64,000 nucleotides of DNA from Ruegeria sediminis (GTDB lineage Bacteria > Pseudomonadota > Alphaproteobacteria > Rhodobacterales > Rhodobacteraceae), in the NCBI RefSeq assembly GCF_005938215.1, contig NZ_VCPD01000008.1:62001-126000 (forward strand), written 5' to 3'. Shown piece after piece: positions 16,246 to 48,874 of the stretch; the stretch's first letter is position 1; each line of letters opens with the position of its first letter. Made by a program: the position numbers and the translations under genes. The notes beneath the pieces were generated by a model. That model saw only the letters and a program-made list of their open reading frames with translations, had not been told where the DNA came from and ran no database searches.

Positions 16246-16254
16246 GGAAAGCCC

Positions 16255-17052: not shown

Positions 17053-17414
17053 CGCGACATTCCCTAATTTAATTGATCCGTTTCCGGGGAATACTCGCCG
17101 GGAAACCGCACCGGCGCAAATACCGGTGCAGTCTAAGCGTCATAGATTTTTTCTATATCGAAGCCGAGGAACCAATCGTCTCGCTCAATTCAAGGCAAGC
17201 AAGTTGGGATAATTAGCGGAACAGTTGGTCAGCGACCTTGTTATCGGGCGCGCGCCCGGCCCCGATATAGGGAAATCGTATAAGAGACATGGAAATTCGC
17301 TATTTGTTGGCTCCGCCTCAGCAATTGCATTCTGACGCCGCCGGATCATGGACGGACTAAAGACGTGCAAGACCCCGACCGTTCCGGACCATTGCAGTCA
17401 CCTGGAGGAGACCC
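17053..17414. promoter_or_regulatory. Divergent intergenic region between the SDR and ABC operons
   Basis: 362 bases without a gene separate two divergent operons, so promoters for both must lie here. The region is more A+T-rich than its surroundings around 17130-17160 and 17200-17330, with TTATACG on the minus strand near 17280 and TATATCG near 17155. I could not define -35/-10 pairs with confidence. The strong ribosome site CTGGAGGAGACCC directly precedes the binding-protein start at 17415. Confidence 0.45.
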
Positions 17415-26623: not shown

Positions 26624-26737
26624 CCGCTCCCCCCTGACCCATAGTAGATTCTTATAGCCAACCGAGGAAAGCGATATTTCCAAGTGACTGCCCGCGCGTG
26701 GGATAGAAAAACGACACATCACGTATTGGAGCAAGTC
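26624..26737. promoter_or_regulatory. Divergent LysR/CaiB promoter region
   Basis: 114 bases between divergent starts. An A+T-rich patch, ATAGTAGATTCTTATAG (26641-26657 region), contains a T-N11-A spacing, the minimal LysR-type recognition pattern, but the arms are weakly symmetrical. Position and context favour LysR control of the CaiB operon; the exact site is uncertain. Confidence 0.35.
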
Positions 26738-32509: not shown

Positions 32510-32510
32510 C

Positions 32511-34016: not shown

Positions 34017-34136
34017 CAAGCAATTTACCCGCCGACGGTGAGCACCTGATATAGGGCAAATCTATGCCTGCGATCATCGATCAGACCTGCCCGGGCCATG
34101 CGACCGATGGTAGTTTGCTCCGCAATGGAGACCTGA

Positions 34137-35294
34137 ATGACCACTATCGAACACCATGATGACATCCGCAGCGCGGTCGCCAAGCTGTGCGAGGCATTTC
34201 CCGGCGACTACTGGCGCAAGCTCGATCAGGAGCGCGGCTATCCCAGCGACTTTGTCCGGGCGCTGACAGACCAGGGTTACCTCGCTGCGTTGATCCCCGA
34301 AGAGTATGGTGGAGCGGGCCTCACGCTTTCAGCGGGCTGCGCCATACTCGAGGAAATCCATCGCGCCGGCTGCAACGCGGGCGCCTGCCATGCCCAGATG
34401 TACACGATGGGCACCCTGCTCCGGCATGGGTCGGACGACCAGAAGGCGCGTTATTTGCCCCGGATCGCAGATGGCTCGCTTCGGCTCCAAGCCTTCGGCG
34501 TCACCGAACCGACTAGTGGCACCAACACCCCTGCCCTGCGCACGACGGCGCGGCGGGAAGGCGACAAATACATCGTCAACGGGCAGAAGATCTGGATCAG
34601 CCGCGCGGAACATTCCGACCTTATGATCTTGCTCTGCCGCACGACCCCCGCCGACAAAGTCACCAAGAAGACTGACGGTTTGTCCGTTCTGATCGTGGAA
34701 ATGAACGACGCTCTCAAGAACGGTCTGTCGATCCGTCCGATCAGGACGATGATGAACCACAACACGACCGAACTGTTCTTCGATGACGTTCCAGTACCTG
34801 CCGAGAACCTGATCGGCGATGAGGGCAAGGGCTTTCGCTACATCCTGTCCGGCATGAATGCCGAGCGGATCCTGATTGCTTCGGAATGCATCGGCGACGC
34901 CAAGTGGTTCATCCAGACCGCGTCAAAATACGCCTCCGAGCGCGAGGTTTTCGGCCGGCCCATCGGTCAGAACCAAGGCGTTCAGTTCCCCATCGCCAAG
35001 GCCTATGCCCGGATGCGGGCGGCGGAGCTGATGCTGCGTGAAGCCATCCGCCTTTACGAGGCAGGCGGCAATCCCGGAGCAGAGGCCAACATGGCCAAGA
35101 TGCTGGCCGCCGAAGCCAGTTGGGAAGCCGCCGAGGCGTGCGTCCAGACCCACGGCGGCTTCGGTTTTGCCGAGGAATATGACGTTGAACGCAAGTTCAG
35201 GGAAACGCGCTTGTATCAGGTCGCACCGATCTCGACCAACCTCATCCTATCCTATCTGGCCGAGCATGTCCTGGGCATGCCGCGCAGTTATTGA
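34137..35294 (+). CDS. Acyl-CoA dehydrogenase
   Basis: A 385-residue flavoenzyme of the acyl-CoA dehydrogenase family. N-terminal helices include YLAALIPEEYGGAGL. The beta domain has LQAFGVTEPTSGTNTPALRT and VNGQKIWISRAEHSD. The C-terminal domain has ASEREVFGRPIGQNQGVQFP, QTHGGFGFAEEYDVERKFRE and RLYQVAPISTNLI, the last conserved in short/branched-chain types. It starts after a 120-base gap from the hydratase gene with GGAGACCTGA before the ATG, so it may belong to the same operon or have its own promoter. An acyl-CoA feeding into the C5 pathway is a possible substrate. Confidence 0.9.
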   Translation: MTTIEHHDDIRSAVAKLCEAFPGDYWRKLDQERGYPSDFVRALTDQGYLAALIPEEYGGAGLTLSAGCAILEEIHRAGCNAGACHAQMYTMGTLLRHGSDDQKARYLPRIADGSLRLQAFGVTEPTSGTNTPALRTTARREGDKYIVNGQKIWISRAEHSDLMILLCRTTPADKVTKKTDGLSVLIVEMNDALKNGLSIRPIRTMMNHNTTELFFDDVPVPAENLIGDEGKGFRYILSGMNAERILIASECIGDAKWFIQTASKYASEREVFGRPIGQNQGVQFPIAKAYARMRAAELMLREAIRLYEAGGNPGAEANMAKMLAAEASWEAAEACVQTHGGFGFAEEYDVERKFRETRLYQVAPISTNLILSYLAEHVLGMPRSY

Positions 35295-35471: not shown

Positions 35472-37397
35472 CTACCCGCTTCGTTCGGCACGCTTGGCAT
35501 ACCCTTTCGCTGGCTCGGCAGAATACCTCCGCGCGCCAAGGCGGGCGGGCCGTTCTGCCACCCGGGCCAGCCCCGCGGCCAACCAGTCCGGCGTCCGCTT
35601 TGCGCGGGCCTCGCCCAATTGAATGGGTTTTATCCCGTCCTCGGACGTCTGCCCGAACCCGACACGGTAGGCTAGCCACCAAACCAGCACCACTCCAAAC
35701 AGCCAGAACAATATCTGCCAGACCCATAGCGAGGGAACTCCCAGCCCAGCCTCGACCTTGGTGAAAATTGGGCGGCTGAAAAACGTGTTTCCCAGAATTG
35801 CCCCGGGACCATAGGCAAGAAATCCCCACAGCAGCATCAAGGTCCACAGCAGGCCGCGCCCACCCGCATTGTTCATCTGATGGGTCGCCATCGCATCGTG
35901 CAGCCGGTCACGTTCCAAGCGATCGGGCGCCCGCAGGGTGACGCCGGACGCAAGAAGTACGAACGAGACATTGAACGCAAGGCCCCAGACTGCCGAATGT
36001 ATCGTCAAGGGCCAACGCCCCCAAGGCAGTTCCACGAACAACGCCTCGAAAAGGATCAATCCAAGCGGTTCGGTGAAAACCACGATCAGCACACCGATCG
36101 TCATCCCGGCCAGGACCGCGCCCCGGCTGATCCAGCGAAAGAATGTCAGGCCAAGAATGGCCGGCAACATCTGCACCGAGAGAGGTAGAGCAACGCTCGC
36201 GGCAACAGCTGAAACGAAGGGAGAAAAAGCAGCCATCAGCGCCATAATGAAGTAAGCAAAACCCAACGCAATGCGCGCCGCCAGCCGTTGTTGCCGATCC
36301 GACAGGCTGGGCAAAAGATAGGCGAATAGCAACTCGCGGGTTACGAGAACTGCGCCGCCGGTCACGAAGAAGCTCACCGCCAGAAGCGCACCGACCAGGT
36401 TGAGCAGCAGCAGACCCACTCCGGCAAGGGGTTCGATTGCAAAAAGATCATCAGCCAGCGCAACCGATCCATCCGGCATTCGCGCCACCAGCAACGGAAC
36501 CGCCAGCACCATTGCTCCGGTGGCGAAACCGCCGGTCATCCAAACGGTGGAAACCCCGAACGCGCGCCCGGCACGCACGGTTTGCCCCAGATACAGCGTC
36601 GCCGGGCTGAAAATGATTCCGATCGCCGCGATCACAGTCGAAGCTATCCCAACCGCCGTGAAGATCCCGCCGGACGGAACGCTTTTGCCGATACCCGCGG
36701 AATTCTGCAGCACGCCGGGGATGCGGTCCCATAACACTCCGTCAGCGACCTGTATGGGCAGCGACGGAAATCCGTCACCCTGCGACGTCATCTCGGTAAA
36801 GACGGCAACACCCGGCAACAACACAGCCAGCAGGATGGATTCCATCGCCAGCACCAAGACGGTTGCACGCCAACCTCCGACGATCGCGGGTATCGCAAGC
36901 GAGAAGGCGATCAGCCAGACACCTGCGACCCGCGGGATGATCCCGTCGGTCGCCGCCTCGAGAATGCGGGCGGCTGAGGATAGAAGATCGGCGGCGAATG
37001 GCAGCGCGAACAAGAGGCCAAGCGCCATGACCGCAACCCGCAAGGCAACGCTGCCGTAGTACCTGCCAAGCGCCTCGCCGGGGGTGTACAGATTTGCAAC
37101 CCGGGTCGCCAGCCAAAGCCGATTGAAGACGAGAAGTGCTGCAATGGCGACCAACACGAAGCCGACCGTCACATGAGTTGCCTGAAGGCCGAACCGCCCG
37201 ACGAGGAACAGATGGCGGTCGATCCCGTACCCCGCCATGACGATACCCGGCAGCAAAAACATCACCGACCAGCCCGGAAGCGCCTGCCCGGCATCCAGAA
37301 AGGTGCCCGGATCCGCATCGGTCCGCGCCACGCGTGCTGCGAAGTACAGCCCGTAAAGCGCGAGCAGAACCAGCGTGATGAGGAGAGGCGTTGTCAC
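35472..37397 (-). CDS. Sodium:solute symporter (SSS/SLC5) family protein
   Basis: A 641-residue inner-membrane transporter with about 13 hydrophobic helices and a 60-residue basic cytoplasmic tail. It begins with a GTG at 37397 that overlaps the stop of the small membrane protein gene (GTGA). SSS features include PGWSVMFLLPGIVMAGYGIDR in the first helices, LYTPGEALGRYYGS, and a broken-helix region with AGIGKSVPSGGIFTAVG. It is long for the family and its final third (after residue 480) is poorly conserved. The preceding small protein resembles the YjcH-ActP arrangement, in which a small membrane subunit precedes the symporter. Last gene of the 35-48 kb operon; substrate unknown. Confidence 0.8.
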   Translation of the reverse strand: MTTPLLITLVLLALYGLYFAARVARTDADPGTFLDAGQALPGWSVMFLLPGIVMAGYGIDRHLFLVGRFGLQATHVTVGFVLVAIAALLVFNRLWLATRVANLYTPGEALGRYYGSVALRVAVMALGLLFALPFAADLLSSAARILEAATDGIIPRVAGVWLIAFSLAIPAIVGGWRATVLVLAMESILLAVLLPGVAVFTEMTSQGDGFPSLPIQVADGVLWDRIPGVLQNSAGIGKSVPSGGIFTAVGIASTVIAAIGIIFSPATLYLGQTVRAGRAFGVSTVWMTGGFATGAMVLAVPLLVARMPDGSVALADDLFAIEPLAGVGLLLLNLVGALLAVSFFVTGGAVLVTRELLFAYLLPSLSDRQQRLAARIALGFAYFIMALMAAFSPFVSAVAASVALPLSVQMLPAILGLTFFRWISRGAVLAGMTIGVLIVVFTEPLGLILFEALFVELPWGRWPLTIHSAVWGLAFNVSFVLLASGVTLRAPDRLERDRLHDAMATHQMNNAGGRGLLWTLMLLWGFLAYGPGAILGNTFFSRPIFTKVEAGLGVPSLWVWQILFWLFGVVLVWWLAYRVGFGQTSEDGIKPIQLGEARAKRTPDWLAAGLARVAERPARLGARRYSAEPAKGYAKRAERSG

Positions 37398-37861
37398 CTG
37401 CGACCCCCGCGATGTGGCAGACGGGACGCCGGGCGAAGGTTGTTGTCGCGGATCACGTCGAACTTTTCGAAGGCTTTGCGCGGCCCGAAGGCGATCACCA
37501 TGTAAACGACCACCGCAATCACCAACGATACCAGCCCCAATCCGACAGGTATGAAGACGCGATCGACGACATCCGGCGAGGCCAGAAGCGCCGTCAGGAG
37601 TAGCGCGACCAGCGCGACGGCGAAGGCGAACACGCCTAGCGCCGTTTCACCCGCCGTGAAACCCGTCTTGAGAACCGTGTTGACGATGACGTGGCCGGCG
37701 AAAGCTGAGATAATCCCGGCAAAACCCGCGGCGATCCACCACCCGCCGCCTCCAGTCATTCCCATGTGCAACAGGGCAATCACGACGAAGGCGGCCGGGG
37801 TCCAGATCGCCATGACAAGCGCATGCCGGTCCAAACGATCGGTGAGGTTGGGATTTGCCAT
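37394..37861 (-). CDS. Four-helix membrane protein, putative small partner of the symporter
   Basis: A 155-residue protein I do not recognise. It has four hydrophobic segments (about residues 15-35, 42-62, 75-95 and 103-125) and a basic C-terminal tail with RPASRLPHRGGRR. It lies between the flotillin gene (20 bases upstream) and the symporter gene, with which it overlaps by four bases. Translational overlap suggests a fixed stoichiometry, as for small accessory subunits that precede SSS transporters. It could equally serve the flotillin. Confidence 0.65.
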   Translation of the reverse strand: MANPNLTDRLDRHALVMAIWTPAAFVVIALLHMGMTGGGGWWIAAGFAGIISAFAGHVIVNTVLKTGFTAGETALGVFAFAVALVALLLTALLASPDVVDRVFIPVGLGLVSLVIAVVVYMVIAFGPRKAFEKFDVIRDNNLRPASRLPHRGGRR

Positions 37862-37881: not shown

Positions 37882-40086
37882 TCAATCGTCTTTGCCGTCA
37901 GGTTTGCCGGACGAAGGGAAGTTGCGGAACGACATGCCGCCGGCGGAACCAAGGTTCTTCAGGGGCAGCCCGATCTCTTCCATGAGCCCATCGACGAATG
38001 CGACCTGCGTCCGGTATTTCATGGCAGAGTTGACCACCTGATCAGACACGCTGCCGCCGCCACCGGTGCCGCCCCCCGTACCGCCGACGCCACCGCCTTC
38101 GGACGGGCTGTTGAGACCGGGCAAACCATCGACCTGCAGGATCTTGATCGACTCGATGTTCTCCATCGGTTTGACCTGTTCGCGGATGATCTCGGGCAGT
38201 CGGGTGACGACGCCCTCGAGAATGGCACTGCGGCGGCTTTCGTCATTTCGCAGGTTTTCCGCCTCGTTGAGCTTCCGACGACCCTCGGAATCCACGCCAT
38301 AGCGGAATTCGGCGGCCTTGGCTTCGGCCATTTCGCCCTCGGCTTTTTGCTCGCTTGCGGCCTTCTCAGCCTCGGCCATCTTGACGACGCGGATTGTCTC
38401 GCGTTCCGCGCGGGCTTGTGCTTCGATGACTTCGACAACCTTGGCGCGGTTGGCTTTTTCCTCCGCCCGGGTGGATTCGACCCGCTCTTCCGTAAGGGCC
38501 AACTTCTTGCGTGCCTCGGCCTCGTTGGTGCGAGCGACTGCTTCGTCAATGGCTTTGTTGACGACCGCGATCAGGCGCTCCTTGTCGGCAAGTTCGATTT
38601 CCATCTGCTGTTCGATTTCGAACCGTTCGACGTATTTCCGGGCAGCAACTCGCAGTTCCTCGATCTCGCGATCGGCAACGATACGTTTGTCCTCGACCTC
38701 GCGCATGCTGGAAGTTTCGGCCAGCTTGATCTTGTGCTGCCGCGCGATGTCGCGTTCTTGAAGCGCCTCTTCGGTCTGAAGCCGATCGCTTTCGACGGCC
38801 AGTTTCTTGGCCAGTGCGGCGCGCTCTTTCTCGGCCTGAGCCTGTTCGGCAGAGACGCGAATAACCTTCTCGCGTTCAACGCCAAGCAATTCGATGGCTT
38901 TTTCAGTCGCAATCCGCGCCTTTTCAACCTCCTGCTGGGTGATGTAGCGCGTGTTCTCGATCTCGCCGTCGCTCTTTGTCTCGAAGGTGGCAACATCAAG
39001 CCGTGACTTGATCTCGGCCTCGCGGATCTCGCGTTCGCGGGCGATGCGTTCGGCTTCGATCTGCTGGCGGGTCTGGATGCGCTCGGTCTCGATGCGGGTC
39101 CTCGAGGTGATCTCGGTCAGTTCGGTATCGCGATGGCGCTCGATCTCCAGGGCCTTGACTTCGTTCTCGCTGGTAATTCTTGCCTCGTCGATGGCGCGGG
39201 CCTTGGCAATCTTGACGCGTTCTGCCTCCTCCTCTGCCCTGGTGCGAGCCTGGGTCACCGCGATCTGCGAACTGGCGCGCTCGGCTTCGACGGCCGCCGT
39301 TTGCTGGGCCTTTTTCGCCTCGATGTCGCGGGCCTGGTCAATGCGGACGAATTCCAGATCGCGGTCAATCTCGATGACCCTCTGTTCGGCTTCAAAGTCG
39401 CGCGTCTTGATCTGAACCTTGGTTTCGTTTTCGATCTGGTTGCGCAGTTTGCGGCGCTCTTCGGTTTCGCGGACGATCAGCGTCAGACCTTCGGCGTCGA
39501 AATGGTTGGTCGGATCAAAATATGAAATGTCGGCCTGGTTCAGTGTCGTCAAAGCGGCGGTCTCCAACTCGAGCCCGTTCTTCGCCAGAACGCCCGAGAC
39601 AATGCTGGACACCTTCTGAACGTAGGCTGCGCGGTCCTGGTGGATTTCCTCCATCGTCATCGACGCCGCTACCGAGGACATGGCGTCCACCAGTCGCCCC
39701 TGAACGACCTCTTTCAGCGACATCGGATCCTGGGTCCGGGCGCCAAGCGTCCGGGCGGCGGTCGAAACGCCTTCCTCGGTGGCCACGACGCGCACGAAAA
39801 ACTCTGTGGTAATATCAATGCGCATTTTGTTGCGCGTGATGAGCGACTGTTCGCCTTGCCGCCGGATTTCGATCGGGATGGCGTTCATGTTCACGACCGT
39901 GATGTCGTGAATGATCGGGATCACCAGCGCACCGCCGCCCATGACCACGCGCTCTCCTCCCGAACCTGTTCGGACAAAGCTCTGGTCCTTGGATGAGTGG
40001 CGATAGAGCCAGTGCAGCAGATAGACGCCCACTGCGATCAGGATCGTTATCAGAATGATGATTGCGATGATGTCGGCACCGGTCAT
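37882..40086 (-). CDS. Flotillin-like SPFH/band 7 protein (YqiK type)
   Basis: A 734-residue membrane scaffold protein. One N-terminal transmembrane helix (IIAIIILITILIAVGVYLLH, residues about 5-25) is followed by an SPFH domain of about 40-205 with RTGSGGERVVMGGGALVIP and TLGARTQDPMSLKEVVQ. Residues about 210-600 are an extremely charged coiled coil with many EA(E/K)R repeats, longer than in E. coli YqiK (about 550 residues in all). A Gly/Ser-rich linker lies near 665-680 and a short conserved tail follows. Such proteins organise membrane microdomains and recruit partners. Its place directly behind the rhodopsin-like gene suggests that the two proteins work together. No NfeD-type partner gene is seen. 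Confidence 0.9.
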   Translation of the reverse strand: MTGADIIAIIILITILIAVGVYLLHWLYRHSSKDQSFVRTGSGGERVVMGGGALVIPIIHDITVVNMNAIPIEIRRQGEQSLITRNKMRIDITTEFFVRVVATEEGVSTAARTLGARTQDPMSLKEVVQGRLVDAMSSVAASMTMEEIHQDRAAYVQKVSSIVSGVLAKNGLELETAALTTLNQADISYFDPTNHFDAEGLTLIVRETEERRKLRNQIENETKVQIKTRDFEAEQRVIEIDRDLEFVRIDQARDIEAKKAQQTAAVEAERASSQIAVTQARTRAEEEAERVKIAKARAIDEARITSENEVKALEIERHRDTELTEITSRTRIETERIQTRQQIEAERIAREREIREAEIKSRLDVATFETKSDGEIENTRYITQQEVEKARIATEKAIELLGVEREKVIRVSAEQAQAEKERAALAKKLAVESDRLQTEEALQERDIARQHKIKLAETSSMREVEDKRIVADREIEELRVAARKYVERFEIEQQMEIELADKERLIAVVNKAIDEAVARTNEAEARKKLALTEERVESTRAEEKANRAKVVEVIEAQARAERETIRVVKMAEAEKAASEQKAEGEMAEAKAAEFRYGVDSEGRRKLNEAENLRNDESRRSAILEGVVTRLPEIIREQVKPMENIESIKILQVDGLPGLNSPSEGGGVGGTGGGTGGGGSVSDQVVNSAMKYRTQVAFVDGLMEEIGLPLKNLGSAGGMSFRNFPSSGKPDGKDD

Positions 40087-40118: not shown

Positions 40119-40808
40119 TCAGTAGCGGTCCTGGCCGGCAACGGCCACGACGATGAGGGACGGAATGATGAGGTTTACGATGTCAAACGCGCTGTACAGC
40201 ACGATGACGCCGCTCGACTGTCCGACACCGATGACGATGTCGACGAAGTGCAGGATCGGGTAGATCGCCCAACCGACGGTCATCAGCAGACGGATCCAGA
40301 AGTATCCCAGCGTCACGGCCCGCCCGGATTTGCGGATGGCCTCGGCCATGGCGCCGAAATACATCTCGCCCAGGATGTAGAGCCAGAATGCGATCGACAG
40401 CAGCGCGCCGAGTGTAGGGTTGAAAAACGACGCATCGCCCAACCAGCGGCCAAAGACCATCAGCAACGCGGCACAGATAAGCCGCCAGAAGACGCCCACC
40501 GGAACCGGCCCTTGGGTTCGGGCGAAGAAATAGACTGCCGCAACCTGCAGCGGGTGAACGCTGTACCATGCCGAGAACCGCACACCGGCGCTGGCCTCCC
40601 CGGCGCTATTCCAGTAACCCGCTGCGCCGGCATAGTAGATCGATGTCACGAGGCAGGCCGCCCCGACCAGTGCCGACGGTACCCGCCAGCGTTCGTTTGA
40701 CCAACTGAGGCCGAGAAAGCAGATGAGCGCCGCGGCGAGGCTCATGACGGCAAGGCCGGTCAGGGTACTCGCGACCACATCCGAAGAGGTATAGAGAGAA
40801 GTGAACAT
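40119..40808 (-). CDS. Microbial rhodopsin-family seven-helix protein lacking the retinal lysine
   Basis: A 229-residue protein with seven hydrophobic helices that aligns by eye with proteorhodopsin over helices C-G. Shared: Arg77-x3-Trp81 and Pro86 in RFSAWYSVHPL (proteorhodopsin RYIDWLLTVPL); LMVFGRWLGDA in helix D; LYILGEMYFG in helix E; GWAIYP (179-184) in helix F, identical to proteorhodopsin; and YSAFDIVN (205-212) in helix G. Lost: the Schiff-base Lys is Leu213 (codon CTC at 40170-40172), the proton acceptor Asp is Ala80 and the donor Glu is Ala91. It therefore cannot bind retinal covalently or pump protons in the usual way. AGGA precedes the start. The gene begins 9 bases after the ABC permease stop and is followed by the flotillin gene. 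Its function is unknown; sensing, ligand binding or regulating the transporter are possibilities. Confidence 0.85.
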   Translation of the reverse strand: MFTSLYTSSDVVASTLTGLAVMSLAAALICFLGLSWSNERWRVPSALVGAACLVTSIYYAGAAGYWNSAGEASAGVRFSAWYSVHPLQVAAVYFFARTQGPVPVGVFWRLICAALLMVFGRWLGDASFFNPTLGALLSIAFWLYILGEMYFGAMAEAIRKSGRAVTLGYFWIRLLMTVGWAIYPILHFVDIVIGVGQSSGVIVLYSAFDIVNLIIPSLIVVAVAGQDRY

Positions 40809-40817
40809 CGGGGTTCC

Positions 40818-42239
40818 TCAGACAGTGGCCCGGATATGCGGTGAACGGCCGTAAAGCGCGACCATGGGCAGGATCAGCAGGCCGAAGATGAATTGTTGCC
40901 ACTCGTATTCGAGGCCAATGCCCAGCAGAAATGAGGTCAGAACCTGCAGGACAAGGACACCGATTACGGTGAAGCCGTAGCCGCCGTTGCCACCTAGAAG
41001 CGAGGTGCCTCCGATAACGACAGCCGCCAGCGTGGTGAAAAGGTAGGGGTCGCCGACGCCGATGAAGGCTCCGCCCGACCAGCCCAGTAGAAGGCAGCCC
41101 GCCAGCGCAGCGAACACGCCAGAGATGACGTAGCAGCCCACCCAGTACTTGAACTCGCTGATGCCGATCAGGCTGGCCGAACGGCGATTGCCGCCGAGTG
41201 CGTAAAGGTTCCGCCCCCAGGACGTGGTGCGAAGCCCGACGATCAATACGATCGCGATCACGATCCAGATGACGATTGTCGGCGGAAAAGCGAGCCCAAG
41301 AAAACGCCCGTTCATCGCGGCGAGGTTGGATAGCCAGCCAGGCACTGTGCCAAAGACGTTGCCGGCGAATTGCGAGCCAATGGAGGTCATTATCTGGGTG
41401 AAACCAGCCACAGCGAACCCGGTTCCCAGCGTCACGATCAGCGCCTGTCCCTGTAGCCGGAAACTGATGATCCCGTTCAACAGCCCGATGACGCCGCCCA
41501 GCACCAGGATGAAGCCGAAAGCGACATAGGACGGTACTCCCACGGTAATAAGGAATAGCAGCGCGATGTTGGACGAGCCGATCACAAACGGGATCGACAG
41601 ATCGAGTCCGCCCAGCAGAGCAACCATGGTCTGGCCTACGCTGGCTATTCCAAGGAAGGCGGCAAAAAGCAGGATCGCCTTGATGTTGGGACCAGACAGG
41701 AACCCTTCGATCGAAAAGGCCGAAATCAGGATCAGCGCGAACAACACGATCAGGCCGATGAACGCGCTTCGTCCGTTCGCGAATTGCCCTGAGATCTTGA
41801 CGGCGAAGAGCAGGATCAGTTCCAGCACCAGAAACGCGATAAGGTTCTTGATCGAGCGGAACTCCGGGATCGACGCGGTCAGCAGCAGATAGAGTACCAG
41901 CAATGCCGCCATTGCCAGAACAAGCAGGCGGTTGTCCCGCCACGCCCGGCGGGCGCTGCGCCCCCTTTCCTCCTGCTCTTCCTCGGTCTCGGCGGCCCGA
42001 AGTTCGGCGCGCGTCTCGAAAACCACGGCCACATAGTTCAGCAGCAGAAACAACACCGCCGCAGTGACAATCGTGAACAGGATCACCTGTTGCGCGGGAA
42101 GAACTTCCTGCGCGAAACCGACGCCGAGGCCGATCGCGGCAACCACCAGCGAAACGGCGACATTGACCCAAGTCACCAGACGGGATTTCGAGATCGGCAA
42201 CGCGCTTGGCCACCTGGCGGTTTTCCGAGCTTCATTCAT
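40818..42239 (-). CDS. Sugar-type ABC transporter permease (RbsC/CUT2 family)
   Basis: A 473-residue inner-membrane permease. The ATG at 42239 overlaps the stop of the preceding permease gene (ATGA); the longer open frame reaching 42749 lies inside that gene and is rejected. A hydrophilic, charged stretch near residues 75-95 (RAAETEEEQEERGRSARR) separates two N-terminal helices from the conserved permease core. The core shows VGQTMVALLGGLDLSIPFVIG (RbsC-type), LVTLGTGFAVAGFTQI-like and GRNLYALGGNRRSASLIGI, the EAA-like coupling loop. It is longer than RbsC (about 320) because of the N-terminal extension. The rhodopsin-like gene follows after nine bases. Confidence 0.88.
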   Translation of the reverse strand: MNEARKTARWPSALPISKSRLVTWVNVAVSLVVAAIGLGVGFAQEVLPAQQVILFTIVTAAVLFLLLNYVAVVFETRAELRAAETEEEQEERGRSARRAWRDNRLLVLAMAALLVLYLLLTASIPEFRSIKNLIAFLVLELILLFAVKISGQFANGRSAFIGLIVLFALILISAFSIEGFLSGPNIKAILLFAAFLGIASVGQTMVALLGGLDLSIPFVIGSSNIALLFLITVGVPSYVAFGFILVLGGVIGLLNGIISFRLQGQALIVTLGTGFAVAGFTQIMTSIGSQFAGNVFGTVPGWLSNLAAMNGRFLGLAFPPTIVIWIVIAIVLIVGLRTTSWGRNLYALGGNRRSASLIGISEFKYWVGCYVISGVFAALAGCLLLGWSGGAFIGVGDPYLFTTLAAVVIGGTSLLGGNGGYGFTVIGVLVLQVLTSFLLGIGLEYEWQQFIFGLLILPMVALYGRSPHIRATV

Positions 42240-43573
42240 CGTGGCGCTCCGAAAAGCTGACTTTCCGGCTGGACGATGATCGCAACGAACAAGGCGACGA
42301 GCAGGACCGCCACGAAGAGATAAAGAAAAAGCCCCATACGACGTGCGCCGGCCTCGGCATCCGTCAGCCGCGCCACAAGCACGAAGGCGATGGCGGCCAG
42401 CCCGGCCATCAGCGCAAAGGCCTGAACCTGGGAAATTGCGAAACCATCGCCCGAAACACGGGCGGGTTCGAGCAGGAAGTACCGCGATGCCAGCGGCGCC
42501 TCGACATGCTGCACAGGTAATTCGGCATAGGTCCCGTAGGTCGCGACCTGCAGCATGATTCCGATCACGACGACGCCCAGAATCAGGAACGCGCTCCAGG
42601 GTGAGATGAAGCTGACGTAGCGGCCAATCACCGGGACCAGCAGCGTCAGCAGCAGCGACAGCACCAGTATGATCCCATAGACCATCTGCGTCATGAAGGC
42701 TTGAATGGCGCCGAAATTGAATGTCGCCAGCACGTAGCCAATCAGCCAAAGGCTTACGGCGCCCAGCAGCGCACCTGTAACTCCGCCACGCCCACCGGAC
42801 AGCGCCACGCCCCCAAGTACCAGGGCCGTGACGGCAGTAAGCGTCATGTTCTGCCCTTGGGTGGGGTCGCCCGACGAGATCAGCGCGGTATAGCAGATGG
42901 CGCCAAGCCCCACATAGATCCCGGCGATCAAATGCGCACCGATCCGGACCAGGTCAGTCTTCACACCCGAGGTCCACGCGGCGCGTTCGTCATAACCCAT
43001 CATCTTGAGATTGGCGTAAATGGTCGACGCGGTGAACAGATACCAGCCCAGCGTCGCAATCACGAGGATCAGAAGCACCGGCGAAAATATGGTGGTGCCA
43101 AGCCCCCAGTTCGCCATGAACTCGGGCGCGACCCCGCCGGGTCGCGGAAGGATGACCAGGTTGATGCCGGTCAGCGCAAGGAACCCCGACAATGCAACGA
43201 TTATGGGCTGCACCCGGACATAGATCACGATCAGCGCGAAAAGCAGTTGATAAAGCATCCCCAACCCCAGCGCGACGATGAAGGTCGCGATCGGGCTTGA
43301 GAGCAGCCCCGCGGTGCTCAGTTTCACGACGACCACGTTGATGAAAGCCAAAAGCGGCCCGACCGCCAGGTCGACAGTCCCTCTCCCCGCCACGGCCAGC
43401 ACCATGAGCGCGTAGGTGGCCAGGATCAGCGGGGCGGCCACGATTATCGCGCTGCCGATGCCCGATGGTGAAACCAGGCTCGGTCCCCGGATGACGGCCG
43501 TTCCCAGCAGCGCCGCCATCAGAACGATCGGCACCAACAGATAGGCATTGGGAGAGGATGATTGCGTCGTCAT
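42236..43573 (-). CDS. Sugar-type ABC transporter permease (RbsC/CUT2 family)
   Basis: A 445-residue permease, the heterodimer partner of the protein encoded next. Core features: LAVAGRGTVDLAVGPLLAFIN (RbsC-type motif near residue 60-80), VALSGFLALTGINLVILPRPGG, DERAAWTSGVKTDLVRIGAH in the coupling-loop position, and LVLGGVALSGGRGGVTGALLGA. Extra C-terminal helices beyond residue 330 make it longer than typical CUT2 permeases. It follows the alpha/beta hydrolase gene after 76 bases containing a strong hairpin (43600-43625). Confidence 0.88.
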   Translation of the reverse strand: MTTQSSSPNAYLLVPIVLMAALLGTAVIRGPSLVSPSGIGSAIIVAAPLILATYALMVLAVAGRGTVDLAVGPLLAFINVVVVKLSTAGLLSSPIATFIVALGLGMLYQLLFALIVIYVRVQPIIVALSGFLALTGINLVILPRPGGVAPEFMANWGLGTTIFSPVLLILVIATLGWYLFTASTIYANLKMMGYDERAAWTSGVKTDLVRIGAHLIAGIYVGLGAICYTALISSGDPTQGQNMTLTAVTALVLGGVALSGGRGGVTGALLGAVSLWLIGYVLATFNFGAIQAFMTQMVYGIILVLSLLLTLLVPVIGRYVSFISPWSAFLILGVVVIGIMLQVATYGTYAELPVQHVEAPLASRYFLLEPARVSGDGFAISQVQAFALMAGLAAIAFVLVARLTDAEAGARRMGLFLYLFVAVLLVALFVAIIVQPESQLFGAPR

Positions 43574-43649: not shown

Positions 43650-44603
43650 TCACAGGTCTACAACGCGGCGCGATGCCGGCCGCTCGGCCGAGCGGTTGCG
43701 CGCGCCGCCTTCCGAACCACGCGACGACCAGTCGCGTGTACTGGCCCCCCGGCGCTCGGGGTCGTTCTGGATGATCTTCTTCAGAACCGGCGTGATCACT
43801 TCCTTGAACTTGTCGGGGTCTTCCGCGGTCGGAAAGTGGCCGCCTCCGAAAATGATGCACTCGCTGTTCTTGACCTTCTCGGCCGTGCGCATGGTCATTT
43901 CCGGTGTGCAGGCGAAATCGTATTCGCCGGTCAAGAAATAGATCGGGACCCTGCCTGAAATCTTGTGAACCTTGTCGCGGTAGTCGGAATCCACCGAGTA
44001 GTAGTAGAGATCACCCTTGAAGATACCTGGACCGCCCTGGGCATAGTACCACCAGGTTTCCCAGCGGTACTCGTCGGGGCTGTCGGGCGCCATCAGGCCG
44101 AAGACAGAGGTCGCGACCGCCTCGCCGCCGTGGATGTGCGGGTGATGCAGCGGGTCGATCCACCAGCCCGGCGAGTGGTCGCAACCCTCGAGTGAGATCA
44201 GCGCCGAATACTCGTTCTCATAGCGCAACGCCAGCTCAAGACAGATGTTGCCGCCCATCGACTGCCCCATGATCACCGGCTTGTGCAGGTCGAGCGCGCG
44301 GCAGAATTCAAGGATGAATTCAGAATAAAAGCTGGTGGTCAGCTTGTATTCATCTTCCTCCAGATGCCAACCGGCCGGCGGTATCGATTTGCCATGACGC
44401 GGCAGATCGAACGCGATCACGCGAAAATTCGCGGTGATGTCCGGATCGCAAAGCTGATGGCGATACTCCCGCCCATCTGCTCCGGCGGTGTGTAGACAAA
44501 CCATGGGAATACCTTCCCCGGCTTCCTCGTAGTAGGTCCGATAAGTCTTGCCTTGGCAGGTCACATAGACATAGCGGCCAACGATCGGATCATGCTTGTT
44601 CAT
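43650..44603 (-). CDS. Alpha/beta hydrolase
   Basis: A 317-residue soluble hydrolase with the complete triad: nucleophile Ser115 in GQSMGG, Asp229 in GEYDFAC and His256 in GGGHFPT. The oxyanion-hole region reads VCLHTAGADGREYRHQ, where family members often have HG. No signal peptide is seen, so it acts in the cytosol, presumably on a compound imported by the surrounding ABC system (ester, lactone or C-C bond). The last 35 residues (SRGSEGGARNRSAERPASRR) are basic and not conserved in the fold. It is 12 bases after the SCP2-like gene. Confidence 0.88.
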   Translation of the reverse strand: MNKHDPIVGRYVYVTCQGKTYRTYYEEAGEGIPMVCLHTAGADGREYRHQLCDPDITANFRVIAFDLPRHGKSIPPAGWHLEEDEYKLTTSFYSEFILEFCRALDLHKPVIMGQSMGGNICLELALRYENEYSALISLEGCDHSPGWWIDPLHHPHIHGGEAVATSVFGLMAPDSPDEYRWETWWYYAQGGPGIFKGDLYYYSVDSDYRDKVHKISGRVPIYFLTGEYDFACTPEMTMRTAEKVKNSECIIFGGGHFPTAEDPDKFKEVITPVLKKIIQNDPERRGASTRDWSSRGSEGGARNRSAERPASRRVVDL

Positions 44604-44615
44604 CGCATCAACTCC

Positions 44616-45020
44616 TTAAACTTCGCGCATAAGCGCCAGCATCCAGGTCAGCGCACGCATGTTCTGCCAGAACGGCAGAGTGTTGCCGTCGATCCGAAGC
44701 TGCTTGTGCAGCGGATGGGCCATGGCCCAGATGTCGTTGAACATCGGCGGAGGCGTTTTCTGGCTGAATTTCGCCCAGGCCGATGAAGGAGCACGCAACG
44801 CGAATTCATATCCGAGATCCGAGGGTTCGAGCCCTTCCGAGATCTTCTCGATCCTGCCCTTGCGCACGTGGCAAAGATAGTCGGTATCGTCGATACCCAG
44901 TACAAAGCGCGCGGTGAAGAACCGGCCTGTAACAGGCAGAACCCGGTCCTCATTCACACGACGCGCCCAGCGTTCAACCCATTCGAGGTCGAAAGCCCTT
45001 CTGCCGCCTTGGTAGCTCAT
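44616..45020 (-). CDS. Small protein, possible SCP2-like sterol/lipid-binding domain
   Basis: A 134-residue soluble protein. The order of features resembles the SCP2 sterol-carrier fold: an initial helix DLEWVERWARRVNED, strands FTARFVLGIDDTDYLCHVRKGRIEKIS, then YEFALRAPSSAWAKF (family pattern 'dftl.gp..aw'), and a terminal QLRIDGNTLPFWQNMRALTWML like the closing helix of SCP2 proteins. This is a pattern match without a search and could be wrong. It lies 16 bases after the ATPase-PEBP gene and before the hydrolase gene. A carrier that binds a hydrophobic substrate of the system is a plausible role. Confidence 0.5.
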   Translation of the reverse strand: MSYQGGRRAFDLEWVERWARRVNEDRVLPVTGRFFTARFVLGIDDTDYLCHVRKGRIEKISEGLEPSDLGYEFALRAPSSAWAKFSQKTPPPMFNDIWAMAHPLHKQLRIDGNTLPFWQNMRALTWMLALMREV

Positions 45021-45036: not shown

Positions 45037-47199
45037 TCAGGCCGCCGGCAGCGCCGTCTTGGCCGGACCGTAGGTTGCGGTGAAACTTGTCTGGTCGATC
45101 GTGACCGGCATTACCGCTTGCGCGAACGCGGTCAGGTCTGCGTCTCTTGGGATGTTCAGCGTCCGCGTCTTGAGCGCGTAAAGCGTGAAGACGTAGCGGT
45201 GCGCCCGGTCTGGAGGCCAAGGACCTCCGTATCCGCGCCCGAAGCCGGGAATGCCGAAGGTCACGAAATCCGAATTCAGTTCCTGCGATCCGGACGGCAT
45301 GGCCGAGCTCATCGACGCGCCCTCCGGCAACCTGCGCACATCGCCGGGAATGTCATGGACCAGCCAGTGTGCAAAGCTGCGATGGAAATTGAACTCGGCG
45401 GGAAGATCCGGGTCCGTGACCGCCAGCGCAAAACTCCGGGTGCCGTCGGGAATGCCTTCCCACTCCAGCGCCGGAGAAACCTTGCTGGTTTCGGCGAAAC
45501 GACCCGGGATCACGCTGCCCTGTGGGATGTCCGGAGCCATAAGCAAGAAGCCGGATTGGTTCATCGCAATTCTCCTGGGGATGTCGGGGCGCAGGCGGAC
45601 CGGGCGTGCATCGGGACGCCCATCCTCTGCGTGCGGGTGCCACCTCTCGATCCGCACGACGTTGTGCGGCTCTTCGCCCGGCAGGCGTGCGTCCGGCTTG
45701 CGCCCAAAGGTGGCGTTTAGGATGACATGGGTATCGAATGGAGGCTCGAAGGTTGAAGACACCACTCCTCCGCGGAACACGAGCACCCGATTGCAGAGAT
45801 CGAGGAATTCCTCGATTTCCGACGACAGAAAGACCACGGCGTTTCCTCGCCCCGCGAATTCCCGAAGGTTTCGGTAGAGGTCGAGCTTGGCGCCGACATC
45901 GATGCCGCGCGCCGGATCGTTGAGGATCAGAACTCGCGGGCGTTCCGCAAATGACCGCGCGATCAGAACTTTCTGCTGGTTTCCGCCGGAAAGAGAGGTG
46001 ATCAGGTTGCCGGGATCACCCATCTTCGTGGCCAATTGCCCGGTTTCATGTTCGAAAATCGGGTCGAGCTTGGTGCGATTGAGAAAACTGAATATCCCGC
46101 CGGCGGCATATTCCCGGTAGATCGACATGCACATGTTCTCGAAGATCGAGAGGTTCGGAAAGATCCCCTCTTTCTTCCGGTCGCCTGACACGTAGGAAAT
46201 ACCGTTATCGCGGGCGCTCCGCAGGTCTACGATGGGCTCGGCGACGTTGTCGCGCACCAGCCTGATGCTGCCGCTTTCCAAAGGTTGCACACCGGCGAGC
46301 GCACGCACGAAGTCGGCCTGGCCTTGACCGTCCAGACCAGTCACGCCAACGACTTCGCCGGGATATAGGTTGAAGTCGAACGGGGCCGTGTCAGGCCAAA
46401 CGCGAATATCGTCGGCCCGTAGAACCGGACGGTCGAGCAACCGCTTGACCGGTTCGGTTGCAGCTTGTGCGCGCTCTCTCTCCGGTCCGGCAATCAGGTG
46501 CAGGATGTTCTCCTCGGTGATCTCGTCCTTGCTCAGCGCCCCTACCGACACGCCGTCCCGCAGAACGGTCGCACGGTCGGCGATGCGGACCAGTTCAGCG
46601 ATCCTGTGAGTTACGATGAAGATCGCGCAGCCCTTGGCCTTCATCTCGCGCATCTTCTTGAACAGCCGCTCGGTCGCTTCGAAATCGAGCGCGGCTGAGC
46701 TTTCGTCGAGGATCAACAGTCGTGGATTGGTCAGCATTCCGCGCGCGATGGTGATCCACTGTTTGATCGAAAGCGGAAGTTCCCCGACGATCGCGTTGGG
46801 ATCGAGATCAAACCCCAATAGGTCGCTGAGAATCCGCTGCGCCTTCGCATATCGGTCCTCCCGCGGTTCGGCCGTGGCGAAAAGCCCGTCCGCACCAAGG
46901 AAAAGGTTGTCGAGAACCGAACATTCATCCGCAACCAGAACTTCCTGGTACACGTTCGCGATGCCCAGGGCCTTGGACTCGGACGGGTTCGTTGCCGTCT
47001 TGCCAAAGATGGAGACCTGCCCGGAGTCCGGAACAAGAACACCCGAAATCACCTTGGCAAGCGTTGATTTTCCCGATCCGTTGCCCCCGATGATCGCGTG
47101 AACTTCGCCCTCGTAGGCCCGCAGGCTGACGCGATCGAGCGCGACGGTCGGCCCGAAGGTCTTCCTGACGTCGATGAGTTCTGCGGCGACTGCGGACAC
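45037..47199 (-). CDS. Double-domain CUT2 ABC ATPase read in frame into a PEBP (YbhB-like) domain
   Basis: A 720-residue open frame starting at GTG 47199 (GGAG eight bases upstream). The first ATPase domain (about 1-240) has Walker A GGNGSGKST, an atypical signature ELPLSIKQWITIARGM and Walker B LLILDESSAAL. The second (about 250-500) has a degenerate Walker A GLDGQGQADF, signature LSGGNQQKVLIAR and Walker B VLILNDPARGID, the normal asymmetry of RbsA/XylG proteins. A 40-residue proline/arginine-rich linker leads into residues 546-720, a PEBP domain with SPALEWEGIP, VTDPDLP, FAHWLVHDIPG and GYGGPWPP. A strong ribosome site before Met546 could also give a separate 175-residue PEBP. The transported substrate is unknown. 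Confidence 0.87.
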   Translation of the reverse strand: MSAVAAELIDVRKTFGPTVALDRVSLRAYEGEVHAIIGGNGSGKSTLAKVISGVLVPDSGQVSIFGKTATNPSESKALGIANVYQEVLVADECSVLDNLFLGADGLFATAEPREDRYAKAQRILSDLLGFDLDPNAIVGELPLSIKQWITIARGMLTNPRLLILDESSAALDFEATERLFKKMREMKAKGCAIFIVTHRIAELVRIADRATVLRDGVSVGALSKDEITEENILHLIAGPERERAQAATEPVKRLLDRPVLRADDIRVWPDTAPFDFNLYPGEVVGVTGLDGQGQADFVRALAGVQPLESGSIRLVRDNVAEPIVDLRSARDNGISYVSGDRKKEGIFPNLSIFENMCMSIYREYAAGGIFSFLNRTKLDPIFEHETGQLATKMGDPGNLITSLSGGNQQKVLIARSFAERPRVLILNDPARGIDVGAKLDLYRNLREFAGRGNAVVFLSSEIEEFLDLCNRVLVFRGGVVSSTFEPPFDTHVILNATFGRKPDARLPGEEPHNVVRIERWHPHAEDGRPDARPVRLRPDIPRRIAMNQSGFLLMAPDIPQGSVIPGRFAETSKVSPALEWEGIPDGTRSFALAVTDPDLPAEFNFHRSFAHWLVHDIPGDVRRLPEGASMSSAMPSGSQELNSDFVTFGIPGFGRGYGGPWPPDRAHRYVFTLYALKTRTLNIPRDADLTAFAQAVMPVTIDQTSFTATYGPAKTALPAA
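45562..45576 (-). promoter_or_regulatory. Internal ribosome binding site and ATG for a stand-alone PEBP product
   Basis: On the minus strand AGGAG (45576-45572) lies seven bases before ATG (45564-45562), inside the ATPase-PEBP frame exactly at the start of the PEBP domain (MNQSGFLLM). This would allow a 175-residue PEBP to be made on its own, close to the 158 residues of E. coli YbhB. It suggests that the two genes were once separate and that the ATPase has lost its stop codon, or that both forms are made. Confidence 0.6.
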
Positions 47200-47245
47200 G
47201 ATCCTTGCTCCGGGCCAGTGGTTTGGATTGATTGGCTGGTTTGGG

Positions 47246-47272
47246 GATCGGCCGCGCACGTGGCGGCCGATC
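47246..47272 (-). promoter_or_regulatory. Intercistronic hairpin after the binding-protein gene
   Basis: GATCGGCCGC (47246-47255) and GCGGCCGATC (47263-47272) form a perfect 10-base-pair stem over a seven-base loop, in the 81 bases between the binding-protein stop and the ATPase start. No T tract follows. It parallels the hairpin behind the other binding-protein gene (18626-18650) and probably raises binding-protein expression over the membrane components. Confidence 0.6.
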
Positions 47273-47280
47273 ACTCTGTA

Positions 47281-48477
47281 TCAGTTCGACTTGGGATGGG
47301 ACGCCGGATCATAGGCTTCCGGATCAGCCGGACGCAGGAAGAAATTGTCCAGGAACTCCTTGCCGGCCCACGCTTCGATGCCGGGATGATACCACTGGTC
47401 GGACTGCTCCGAGCAATCCGCCGGAATGGCTTCCATCATCTCGTCGCGCGTCATCATCACCGGCTCGGTCAGGATCGACTGGACCTTGGGCCCCTGCCCC
47501 TGAAGCGTGCGGATCATGATGTTCCAGATCATCTCGAAATCGTCACCGGGAGGCCAGGCGTGGATTGCAGCGGACACGTAGTCGGGGTTGTTCCGCCAGT
47601 AGCAGAGCGCGCCAAGTTCGGAACCGATGGTGATCGGAATCATTTCGCGGCCGGATTGCTGGAGCGCACGCAAGGCGCCCAGTTCGGATGCCGACTGAAT
47701 GATGATGCCGTCCAGCTTGCCTGGATTGGTCGCCAGCCAGCGCTGAATCTCTGCCTGTGCGACCTGATCGGTCCACATGCCAGCCAGCGGACCCTTGACC
47801 TTGATGTCCGGGTTTTCAGCCATGGCGGCCTCGATCCCGACGTTCTGGCTGTCCGATGCCGAAGCACCGGGGATGCCCTCGACGTTCAGGACGGTGCCGT
47901 TGCCGCCGATCTCGTTCGCCATCCATTCGCCCATCATCCGGCCGCCGACGACGAAGTTCGCCGAAGAGTTGACGGAATAGGGGCTGGTCAAGTAGCCGAT
48001 GCCCGAAAACACGGCAACGCCGTTGTTGTAGGCGTATTCGACCGATGCGTTCAGCGCCGTTGGGTTCGAGCAACAGACGATGATCGCATCCACGCCCTGA
48101 TCGACAAGCTGACGGATCTGCTGGATCTGCGTAGCGTCATTCAGGTTCGACTGTGTTACGATCACCTCTTCGATCATGCCCAGCTCTTTCCATTTCGGAA
48201 TGAGCTCGTTCTGCAACCGGTCCATGACCGCCGCGCGCCAGGTGTTTCCCGCATAGGACGATGCGTAGCCGATCTTCCAGGGCGGTGGGTTTTTGGCAAC
48301 CCAGTCGCGATACGCGCTGTCGCCCAAGGGCTGGTTGGGATCCATCAGATCCGGGTTGTAAAGCTTTTCTTGGATTTCGGCCGGCAGTTCATCGACGCCG
48401 GCATTTGCAGCCGATGCGGCGACGACTGATGCTGTAACGACAGCGGCCCGCAGCATGTGCGAGATGGTATTTCTCAT
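47281..48477 (-). CDS. Sugar-type ABC transporter substrate-binding protein
   Basis: A 398-residue periplasmic protein. The ATG at 48477 is chosen for the strong GGAGGAGGGG site just before it and the signal peptide it exposes (RNTISHMLRAAVVTASVVAA, then SAANA-GVDE). The mature part is a type I periplasmic-binding fold: WKIGYASSYAGNTWRAAVMD, QIRQLVDQGVDAIIVCCSNP and NFVVGGRMMGEWMANEIGGNG follow the RbsB/XylF pattern, with a longer N-terminal segment and about 40 extra C-terminal residues. Ligand unknown; the operon's lipid- and hydrolase-type partners argue against a simple sugar. First gene of the long minus-strand operon. Confidence 0.88.
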   Translation of the reverse strand: MRNTISHMLRAAVVTASVVAASAANAGVDELPAEIQEKLYNPDLMDPNQPLGDSAYRDWVAKNPPPWKIGYASSYAGNTWRAAVMDRLQNELIPKWKELGMIEEVIVTQSNLNDATQIQQIRQLVDQGVDAIIVCCSNPTALNASVEYAYNNGVAVFSGIGYLTSPYSVNSSANFVVGGRMMGEWMANEIGGNGTVLNVEGIPGASASDSQNVGIEAAMAENPDIKVKGPLAGMWTDQVAQAEIQRWLATNPGKLDGIIIQSASELGALRALQQSGREMIPITIGSELGALCYWRNNPDYVSAAIHAWPPGDDFEMIWNIMIRTLQGQGPKVQSILTEPVMMTRDEMMEAIPADCSEQSDQWYHPGIEAWAGKEFLDNFFLRPADPEAYDPASHPKSN

Positions 48478-48874
48478 TTCCCCTCCTCCAGGATTGATCA
48501 ACACGATGGCAATCCCAGAGAAGTCCAGCATCGATCGAGGGGAATCGGAAATATCAATCACCGATACCTACTATCTGGAAAACTTATATTGGATGCGGGC
48601 TCCTTGGCTGCATTCCATTCCGACCTCCAGGTTGGCGGCCAAAATTCATATTTTTTGCATATAGTTAACTATCGCCGGATGCGTGCACCCAATACGGTTA
48701 GAAGAAAAACATTGAGGTCGACTTGCGAACGCACAGTTTGGTGCGACCGCCCAAGCAGGACGCGCTTGTCCTAAACTCCGAGGTCGATCGGCGAGTATTT
48801 GGATACACCAAATTACGATTTGCTGCAGAAACTGTTGAAGCAACAACCTCATGCACGCAGGTGTTGGACGCAGT

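What the first reader, a model, noticed from the sequence alone, without database searches (positions are those of the whole stretch)
40119..40808. Microbial rhodopsin homologue without the retinal-binding lysine
Seen: seven helices; helix F GWAIYP (179-184) identical to proteorhodopsin, helix E LYILGEMYFG, helix D LMVFGRWLGDA, helix C R-x3-W-x4-P and helix G YSAFDIVN. The Schiff-base lysine is Leu213 (CTC), the acceptor Asp is Ala80 and the donor Glu is Ala91. CTC to a Lys codon needs at least two base changes, so a sequencing error is unlikely. Known: type 1 opsins lacking this lysine have been described, with no settled function. Inference: the fold here has been repurposed as a non-photochemical sensor or as a partner of the transporter. 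No retinal or carotenoid synthesis gene is in the window.
Basis: partly seen in the sequence, partly recalled or inferred. Interest (0 to 1): 0.92.

Follow-up and report, generated by a model that had tools for sequence, protein, structure and literature searches.

The report
Blind rhodopsin in a transporter operon
A bacterial relative of light-harvesting rhodopsins has lost its retinal-binding lysine and sits in a conserved operon between a membrane importer and a flotillin (membrane-scaffold) gene, which suggests that the fold now does a light-independent job in nutrient uptake.

Summary
In detail: window 40808-40119 (minus strand) encodes a 229-aa type-1 rhodopsin homologue (PF01036 4.4e-9; AlphaFold model matches PsFAR 9r21, TM 0.92) with Leu213 at the retinal-lysine site. 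Lysine-less FArhodopsins, Leu forms included, were already reported from freshwater metagenomes (PMC10308929), so this is a new member of a known kind. Added here: Leu213 and a pocket-filling Arg121 in 21 of 21 sequences; a sister clade with Arg at the site (5 of 5); isolates among the carriers; no second PF01036 match in 24 of 24 genomes; no known retinal-forming oxygenase found in the window's genome. Permease A, permease B, opsin, flotillin stand in this order in 29 of 29 loci with reach. Clusters of the Lys and Arg clades also carry an AttM-like lactonase (10 of 10). Best reading: a light-independent seven-helix part of a flotillin-scaffolded importer (identity near certain, mechanism about 0.5). 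The published idea of a helper for a proton-pumping rhodopsin fits these genomes poorly.

The parts
40119..40808 (-). Lysine-less flotillin-associated rhodopsin homologue, 229 aa, seven helices
   Evidence: PF01036 4.4e-9; PDB 9r21 5.8e-35; model m2e26649c71d6, TM 0.92 to 9r21
40170..40172 (-). Codon 213 (CTC, Leu) at the retinal-lysine position (bacteriorhodopsin K216)
   Evidence: Leu in 21 of 21 sequences of the clade, window included
40446..40448 (-). Codon 121 (Arg) at bacteriorhodopsin G122 / PsFAR E120, a retinal-pocket position
   Evidence: Arg in 21 of 21 Leu-clade and 5 of 5 Arg-clade sequences; pairing with PsFAR E120 from the alignment
40554..40556 (-). Codon 85 (His) at PsFAR H84
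   Evidence: His in 18 of 21 Leu-clade sequences
37882..40086 (-). Flotillin, 734 aa, 32 bp after the opsin; the only match of this protein in the genome
   Evidence: PF15975 1.5e-30, Band_7 2.3e-14; 1 match in G000; next to the opsin in 31 of 31 loci
40818..42239 (-). ABC importer permease B, 473 aa, with N-terminal extension; stop 9 bp before the opsin
   Evidence: PF02653 1.4e-28; start ATG 42239
42236..43573 (-). ABC importer permease A, 445 aa, with C-terminal extension
   Evidence: PF02653 6.1e-10; lengths in relatives
43650..44603 (-). alpha/beta hydrolase, 317 aa
   Evidence: PF00561 2.8e-20
44616..45020 (-). SCP2-like lipid-carrier fold, 134 aa
   Evidence: No significant Pfam match (SCP2 best 0.046 in 2 of 18 homologues); model pLDDT 70 matches SCP2 1wfr, TM 0.63, E 1e-5
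45037..47274 (-). ABC importer ATPase fused to a C-terminal phosphatidylethanolamine-binding-protein domain (start uncertain)
   Evidence: PF00005 2.6e-39, PF01161 7.2e-31 at residues 592-735
47281..48561 (-). Periplasmic sugar-type substrate-binding protein (start uncertain)
   Evidence: PF13407 5.7e-36; PDB CUT2 binding protein 4rs3 1.2e-19
37394..37861 (-). 155-aa hydrophobic protein, no family
   Evidence: no Pfam/NCBIfam match; present in Leu and Arg clades, not matched in the five Lys-bearing loci
35472..37397 (-). 641-aa membrane protein, probable solute:sodium symporter (weak label)
   Evidence: no Pfam match; NF046076 MctP 6.5e-4, far under its cut-off; paper PMC10308929 names a sodium symporter in marine FAR clusters

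Best explanation
It is a lysine-less flotillin-associated rhodopsin. Shown: the rhodopsin fold, the loss of the Schiff-base site, the fixed replacement residues, and the invariant gene order. Inferred: the protein is a light-independent membrane component of a CUT2-type ABC importer. It would bind the extended permeases A and B on one side and the flotillin on the other, so that importer, symporter and cytoplasmic hydrolase form one uptake unit in a flotillin microdomain. The old retinal pocket is filled by side chains (Leu213, Arg121, His187, often His85) and serves structure, not light. In the Lys and Arg clades the imported compound is probably a small lactone or hydroxy acid; in the window's own clade the substrate is open.
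For: Fold and family. Leu213, Arg121, His187, Asp190 in 21 of 21 sequences with low dN/dS. Order permease A > permease B > opsin > flotillin in 29 of 29 loci with reach, although the other cluster genes change place between the three clades; 6-12 bp between permease B and opsin in 19 of 20 Leu-clade loci. All ten window genes in 18 of 18 Leu-clade loci with full reach and 5 of 5 Arg-clade loci; nine of ten in 5 of 5 Lys-bearing loci. Permease A is 440-797 aa in these loci against 324 aa in the one close relative of the importer found without opsin and flotillin, G247/L100. No second PF01036 match in 24 of 24 genomes and no retinal-forming oxygenase found in the window's genome. AttM-like lactonase in 10 of 10 Lys- and Arg-clade loci, over the NCBIfam cut-off in the two of three tested (L113, L082; L083 under it).
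Against: No physical interaction was tested. Gene order alone would also fit a sensor or a lipid-handling role. G247 shows that an importer about 50% identical can exist without the opsin; its contig ends just after permease B, so the comparison is one case with a caveat. tblastn carries the permease B match of G247 further upstream (from residue 90) than the other search (from 177), so the permease B extension is less clear than that of permease A. The AttM link is absent from the window and seen in 1 of 19 other database loci plus 0 of 1 (L111) of the Leu clade.
Confidence: 0.5

Rival explanations
1. A non-light receptor: the former retinal pocket binds a small or fatty ligand and the opsin signals through flotillin or the importer, as an analogue of a GPCR.
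For: Pocket positions are not neutral but fixed as charged or polar residues (Arg121, His187, Asp190, Asp209 in 21 of 21). A retinal-free proteo-opsin was solved with decanoate (title of 8cnk). Sensory use was proposed for haloarchaeal lysine-less opsins (abstract of PMC4915679).
Against: No transducer gene seen in the scanned cluster genes; PMC10308929 makes the same point for marine clusters (section 18).
Confidence: 0.22
2. A lipid scramblase or lipid organiser of the flotillin microdomain, needing no light.
For: Opsin and bacteriorhodopsin scramble phospholipids (passages of PMC5711885, which cites light-independent activity of bacteriorhodopsin); the cluster holds an SCP2-like protein and, in the Leu clade, a PEBP domain on the ATPase.
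Against: It does not explain the fixed place beside permease B or the fixed pocket residues.
Confidence: 0.1
3. It still serves light: it holds retinal or a carotenoid without a covalent bond, taken from outside.
For: Published FArhodopsins are linked to the photic zone (PMC10308929, sections 15 and 18); G357 (Lys clade) has a carotenoid oxygenase (PF03055 1.2e-105) and G391, a Leu-clade MAG, a PF15461 match.
Against: Leu213 and Arg121 are invariant; the window's genome has neither oxygenase family; carriers come also from petroleum soil and a cold seep.
Confidence: 0.07
4. It helps a proton-pumping proteorhodopsin in the same cell, as proposed for marine FArhodopsins.
For: Marine single-cell genomes with FArhodopsin also hold a proteorhodopsin (PMC10308929); here G337 and G259 have two matches each.
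Against: 24 of 24 other genomes with a FAR-type gene have at most one PF01036 match. Limits: completeness is not given for 19 of them, several are MAGs, and the model missed the divergent opsin itself in G395 and G400.
Confidence: 0.03
5. A decaying relic kept by its place in the operon.
For: Loss of the defining lysine.
Against: Intact frame in 21 of 21 sequences and dN/dS 0.10-0.30 in 16 pairs.
Confidence: 0.03

Closest known systems
FArhodopsins (Haro-Moreno et al. 2023, PMC10308929); PsFAR structures 9r21, 9r23
   Same: Fold, clade, flotillin next door, shared cluster genes (SCP2-like, hydrolase, inner-membrane permease, symporter); the paper reports freshwater forms with Q, T, L or R at the lysine site. 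H84 and E120, the positions changed in the PsFAR double mutant 9r23, match His85 and Arg121 here.
   Different: Marine members keep the lysine and a DTT/DTL/DNI motif and live beside a proteorhodopsin; here Ala80-Val84-Ala91, Leu213, and no second PF01036 match in the genome. Carriers here include named isolates and plasmids of Rhizobiaceae and Martelella.
Rh-noK of betaproteobacteria (Yamauchi 2019, as described in PMC10308929)
   Same: Type-1 opsin without the lysine.
   Different: Related to xanthorhodopsins and in tandem with a functional rhodopsin, per that paper; here the closest kin are FArhodopsins and no tandem rhodopsin is present.
Haloarchaeal opsin-related proteins (Becker 2016, PMC4915679, abstract seen)
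   Same: Opsin homologues without the canonical retinal site.
   Different: Different group and proposed taxis role; not compared by sequence here.
CUT2 sugar ABC importers (RbsABC, YtfQRT-YjfF)
   Same: Binding protein, double ATPase and two permeases.
   Different: All scores lie far under the equivalog cut-offs; permeases are longer, and opsin plus flotillin are added.
blcABC (attKLM) gamma-butyrolactone operon of Agrobacterium (passages of PMC3907764)
   Same: AttM-family lactonase, iron-type alcohol dehydrogenase and succinate-semialdehyde dehydrogenase beside the opsin cluster in L113 and L115.
   Different: Full set in 2 of 5 Arg-clade loci only; not in the window.

Membership tests
FArhodopsin | Type-1, proteorhodopsin-like seven-helix fold | tested here: met
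FArhodopsin | Falls with FArhodopsins and apart from proteorhodopsins in a tree | tested here: met
   26 FAR rows against 24 PR rows, 98/99; 99/94. A long stem (2.4 changes per column) and a long-branch warning apply.
FArhodopsin | Flotillin gene next to the opsin on the same strand | tested here: met
   31 of 31 loci
FArhodopsin | Other FAR-cluster genes (SCP2-like, permease, hydrolase, symporter) | tested here: met
   the symporter label is weak
FArhodopsin (marine subgroup) | DTT, DTL or DNI motif and retinal lysine | tested here: not met
   Ala80, Val84, Ala91, Leu213. The paper counts lysine-less freshwater sequences as FArhodopsins, so this places the protein outside the marine subgroup only.
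FArhodopsin (marine subgroup) | Bona fide proteorhodopsin elsewhere in the genome | tested here: not met
   one PF01036 match in the whole genome
Retinylidene (photoactive) microbial rhodopsin | Schiff-base lysine in helix G | tested here: not met
   Leu213, no other Lys in the pocket
Retinylidene (photoactive) microbial rhodopsin | Binds retinal and absorbs visible light | not testable with these tools
   needs purified protein
Rh-noK (betaproteobacterial) | Tandem with a functional rhodopsin | tested here: not met
CUT2 ABC importer (cluster) | Periplasmic binding protein, ATPase, permeases of the sugar class | tested here: met

The most novel reading that the evidence does not exclude
A type-1 rhodopsin fold has become an obligatory, light-independent subunit of an ABC importer, joined to it through extra transmembrane segments of the permeases and held in a flotillin microdomain; in its Lys- and Arg-type relatives the machine takes up small lactones or hydroxy acids, so that FArhodopsins as a whole are uptake parts and not photoreceptors.
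Probability: 0.35. Interest if true: 0.85.

Novelty: new member of a known kind. Interest (0 to 1): 0.6.

Why it matters
The function of FArhodopsins is open, and the published members are known from uncultured aquatic cells. Cultured carriers with this gene as the only detected rhodopsin, and a gene order that ties it to one importer, make the question testable by simple gene deletion. If the opsin is an importer part, a fold thought of as a light machine has been turned into a transport component, and the abundant marine forms would need a new reading too.

Tried and rejected
Proteorhodopsin helper: no second PF01036 match in 24 of 24 genomes. Pseudogene: dN/dS. Lysine one turn away: none.

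Led nowhere or limited: searches for the paper behind PsFAR and for decanoate-bound proteo-opsin gave nothing useful. The lycopene-cyclase family search is not specific: it also rang in 10 of 14 control genomes; full-length matches were seen only in G395, G337 and G259, and the window's genome had short matches only. A profile search of the PDB with the 134-aa protein found nothing. Co-evolution between opsin and permease was not attempted, as too few sequences are at hand. My first permease B start (42296) was wrong; the ATG at 42239 is used here, but the query proteins carried 19 extra residues. Several ORF lengths were misread for the same kind of reason and are replaced; L048 permease A (627) and L085 permease B (1115) remain of uncertain start. 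H3 was not opened.

Full report
What is there. The minus strand of 40119-40808 encodes 229 aa that match PF01036 over the cut-off. The sequence search of the PDB puts 9r21 and 9r23, 'flotillin-associated rhodopsin', first (5.8e-35 and 9.1e-33), ahead of proteorhodopsins (1.2e-18 and weaker). The AlphaFold model (pLDDT 85.9) matches 9r21 with TM 0.92 and rmsd 1.6 and Z 30.4 (proteorhodopsin 7b03 scores 30.0, so the structure alone does not separate the two families).

The site. Leu213 stands where bacteriorhodopsin has K216; Ala80, Val84 and Ala91 replace the acceptor, Thr and donor positions (bacteriorhodopsin numbering from my own knowledge). In 20 aligned sequences (window and 19 database relatives) and in the Shinella record L111, Leu213, Arg121, His187 and Asp190 are invariant: 21 of 21. 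Position 80 is Ala, Gly or Thr. Arg121 falls on PsFAR E120 and His85 on PsFAR H84 (alignment), the two residues changed in the entry 9r23 'double mutant H84V/E120G'. That these fill the retinal space is an inference: the paper describes four conserved residues that would clash with retinal in marine FArhodopsins (section 17), but I did not see which ones.

Relatives. The relatives were found with patterns from the window protein and are thus close kin (19 of 74 pattern hits). A search of plasmids found six records. Five sequences at about 34-41% identity (L112-L116) have Arg at the lysine site and also carry the Arg121 counterpart. Lys-bearing FArhodopsins were found in five genomes (L003-L007; fetched wider as L081-L085). 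In the tree the Leu clade is one side of a branch (100/100) and lies with the Lys-bearing forms and PsFAR against 24 proteorhodopsin rows (98/99). In one search Leu and Arg clades together are one side of a branch (100/100), in keeping with one loss of the lysine; the program warned of long branches meeting there, so the rooting of that event is open.

Neighbourhood. The gene is the seventh of ten on one strand: binding protein, ATPase with a PEBP domain, SCP2-like protein, hydrolase, permease A, permease B, opsin, flotillin, 155-aa protein, probable symporter. Over 31 loci (window, L032-L050, L111-L116, L081-L085) the flotillin follows the opsin in 31 of 31; permease B precedes it in 30 of 30 where the contig reaches; permease A, permease B, opsin and flotillin stand in that order in 29 of 29 where permease A is in reach. 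The binding protein and ATPase, the SCP2-like and hydrolase pair, and the symporter move around this block from clade to clade. The SCP2-like and hydrolase pair also occurs away from FAR clusters (7 of 7 such loci opened). Permease A is 440-457 aa in the Leu clade (L048 uncertain), 464-477 in the Arg clade and 757-797 in Lys-bearing loci, against profiles of 321-375 positions for the CUT2 permeases that match.

A FAR-less importer. Of 372 genomes of the class, seven have a permease B match at 1e-45 or better: six are FAR loci and one, G247, is not. G247 has binding protein, ATPase and both permeases at 49-52%, beside genes that I read by eye from the ORF translations as sugar-acid enzymes (no family search was run on them), and neither flotillin nor opsin match (not among the matches). 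Its permease A is 324 aa. The contig ends next to permease B, so this is one case with a caveat.

No light gear. The window's genome has one PF01036 match. Among 19 genomes of the Leu-clade loci, 17 have one match and two (G395, G400) none, their own opsin being too divergent for the model; three Lys-bearing genomes have one each and G575 has one. So 0 of 24 have a second. For comparison, G337 and G259 showed two matches each to the window protein. Completeness is not given for the 19 and several are MAGs. PF15461, the bacterial retinal-forming oxygenase, matched 3 of 25 genomes: G337, G259 and the Leu-clade MAG G391. PF03055 matched 1 of 13, G357. The window's genome matched neither. Some sources are hardly sunlit (petroleum soil, cold seep), though these are Arg-clade carriers.

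What the cluster feeds on. AttM-like lactonase genes lie in 5 of 5 Arg-clade and 5 of 5 Lys-bearing loci and in one Leu-clade locus, L037, but not in the window. Of three tested against NCBIfam, L113 and L082 pass the AttM cut-off and L083 does not. An iron-type alcohol dehydrogenase follows in 5 of 5 Arg-clade loci, over no NCBIfam cut-off; a succinate-semialdehyde dehydrogenase over its cut-off lies in L113, with a 99% twin in L115. PMC3907764 (passages) describes blcABC as turning gamma-butyrolactone into succinate. In PMC10308929 the words lactonase, butyrolactone and permease do not occur in the main text, and no held paper has rhodopsin, flotillin and lactonase together. In the Leu clade the flanks hold instead MmgE/PrpD (16 loci, two of them weak at 29-30%), LysR, CoA-transferase and MaoC-like genes, so the window's own substrate is unknown.

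Spread. The family is rare and patchy: 3 of 390 genomes of the order match the Leu-clade profile (the window's, G686 and the Arg-type G575), and the 20 same-genus genomes listed have none.

What is known. FArhodopsins, their flotillin, and lysine-less forms with Q, T, L or R are in PMC10308929 (abstract, sections 14, 15, 17, 18, parts 1-2 of the text, and passages read). Searches for other papers on FArhodopsin found only one further paper that mentions it (listing only). So the finding is a new member of a known kind; the added points are the isolates, the lack of a second rhodopsin, the fixed pocket residues, the fixed order with the permeases, and the lactonase link. Whether these points are in subscription papers or preprints could not be checked.

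Judgement. That this is a lysine-less FArhodopsin is near certain. That it is a light-independent part of a flotillin-scaffolded importer is my best reading at about 0.5; a ligand receptor in the same setting is the main rival.

Noticed in passing
window 45037-47274 (residues 592-735): The importer ATPase carries a fused C-terminal PEBP domain; tblastn coverage suggests the same in 16 of 17 Leu-clade relatives in reach (not L047) and in none of the ten Arg- and Lys-clade loci.
   Followed up: partly
L086-L092: The SCP2-like protein and the alpha/beta hydrolase form a two-gene pair also away from opsin clusters, in 7 of 7 loci opened.
   Followed up: partly
L082:3748-5250 and 15653-18007: Lys-bearing marine-type cluster with a biotin-carboxylase-like gene and an N,N-dimethylformamidase-like gene (PF20254 2e-91), as the FAR paper reports for its clusters.
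   Followed up: partly
window 30974-35294: Citrate-lyase alpha-like, class I fumarase-like and acyl-CoA dehydrogenase genes run convergent to the opsin operon; acyl-CoA dehydrogenase relatives also flank many Leu-clade clusters.
   Followed up: partly
window 25703-27817: LysR-type regulator and family III CoA-transferase relatives of genes that flank other Leu-clade clusters (48% and 56%).
   Followed up: no
window 52397-54010: GH3-family protein (PF03321 1.8e-28), best known from plants, in this bacterium.
   Followed up: no
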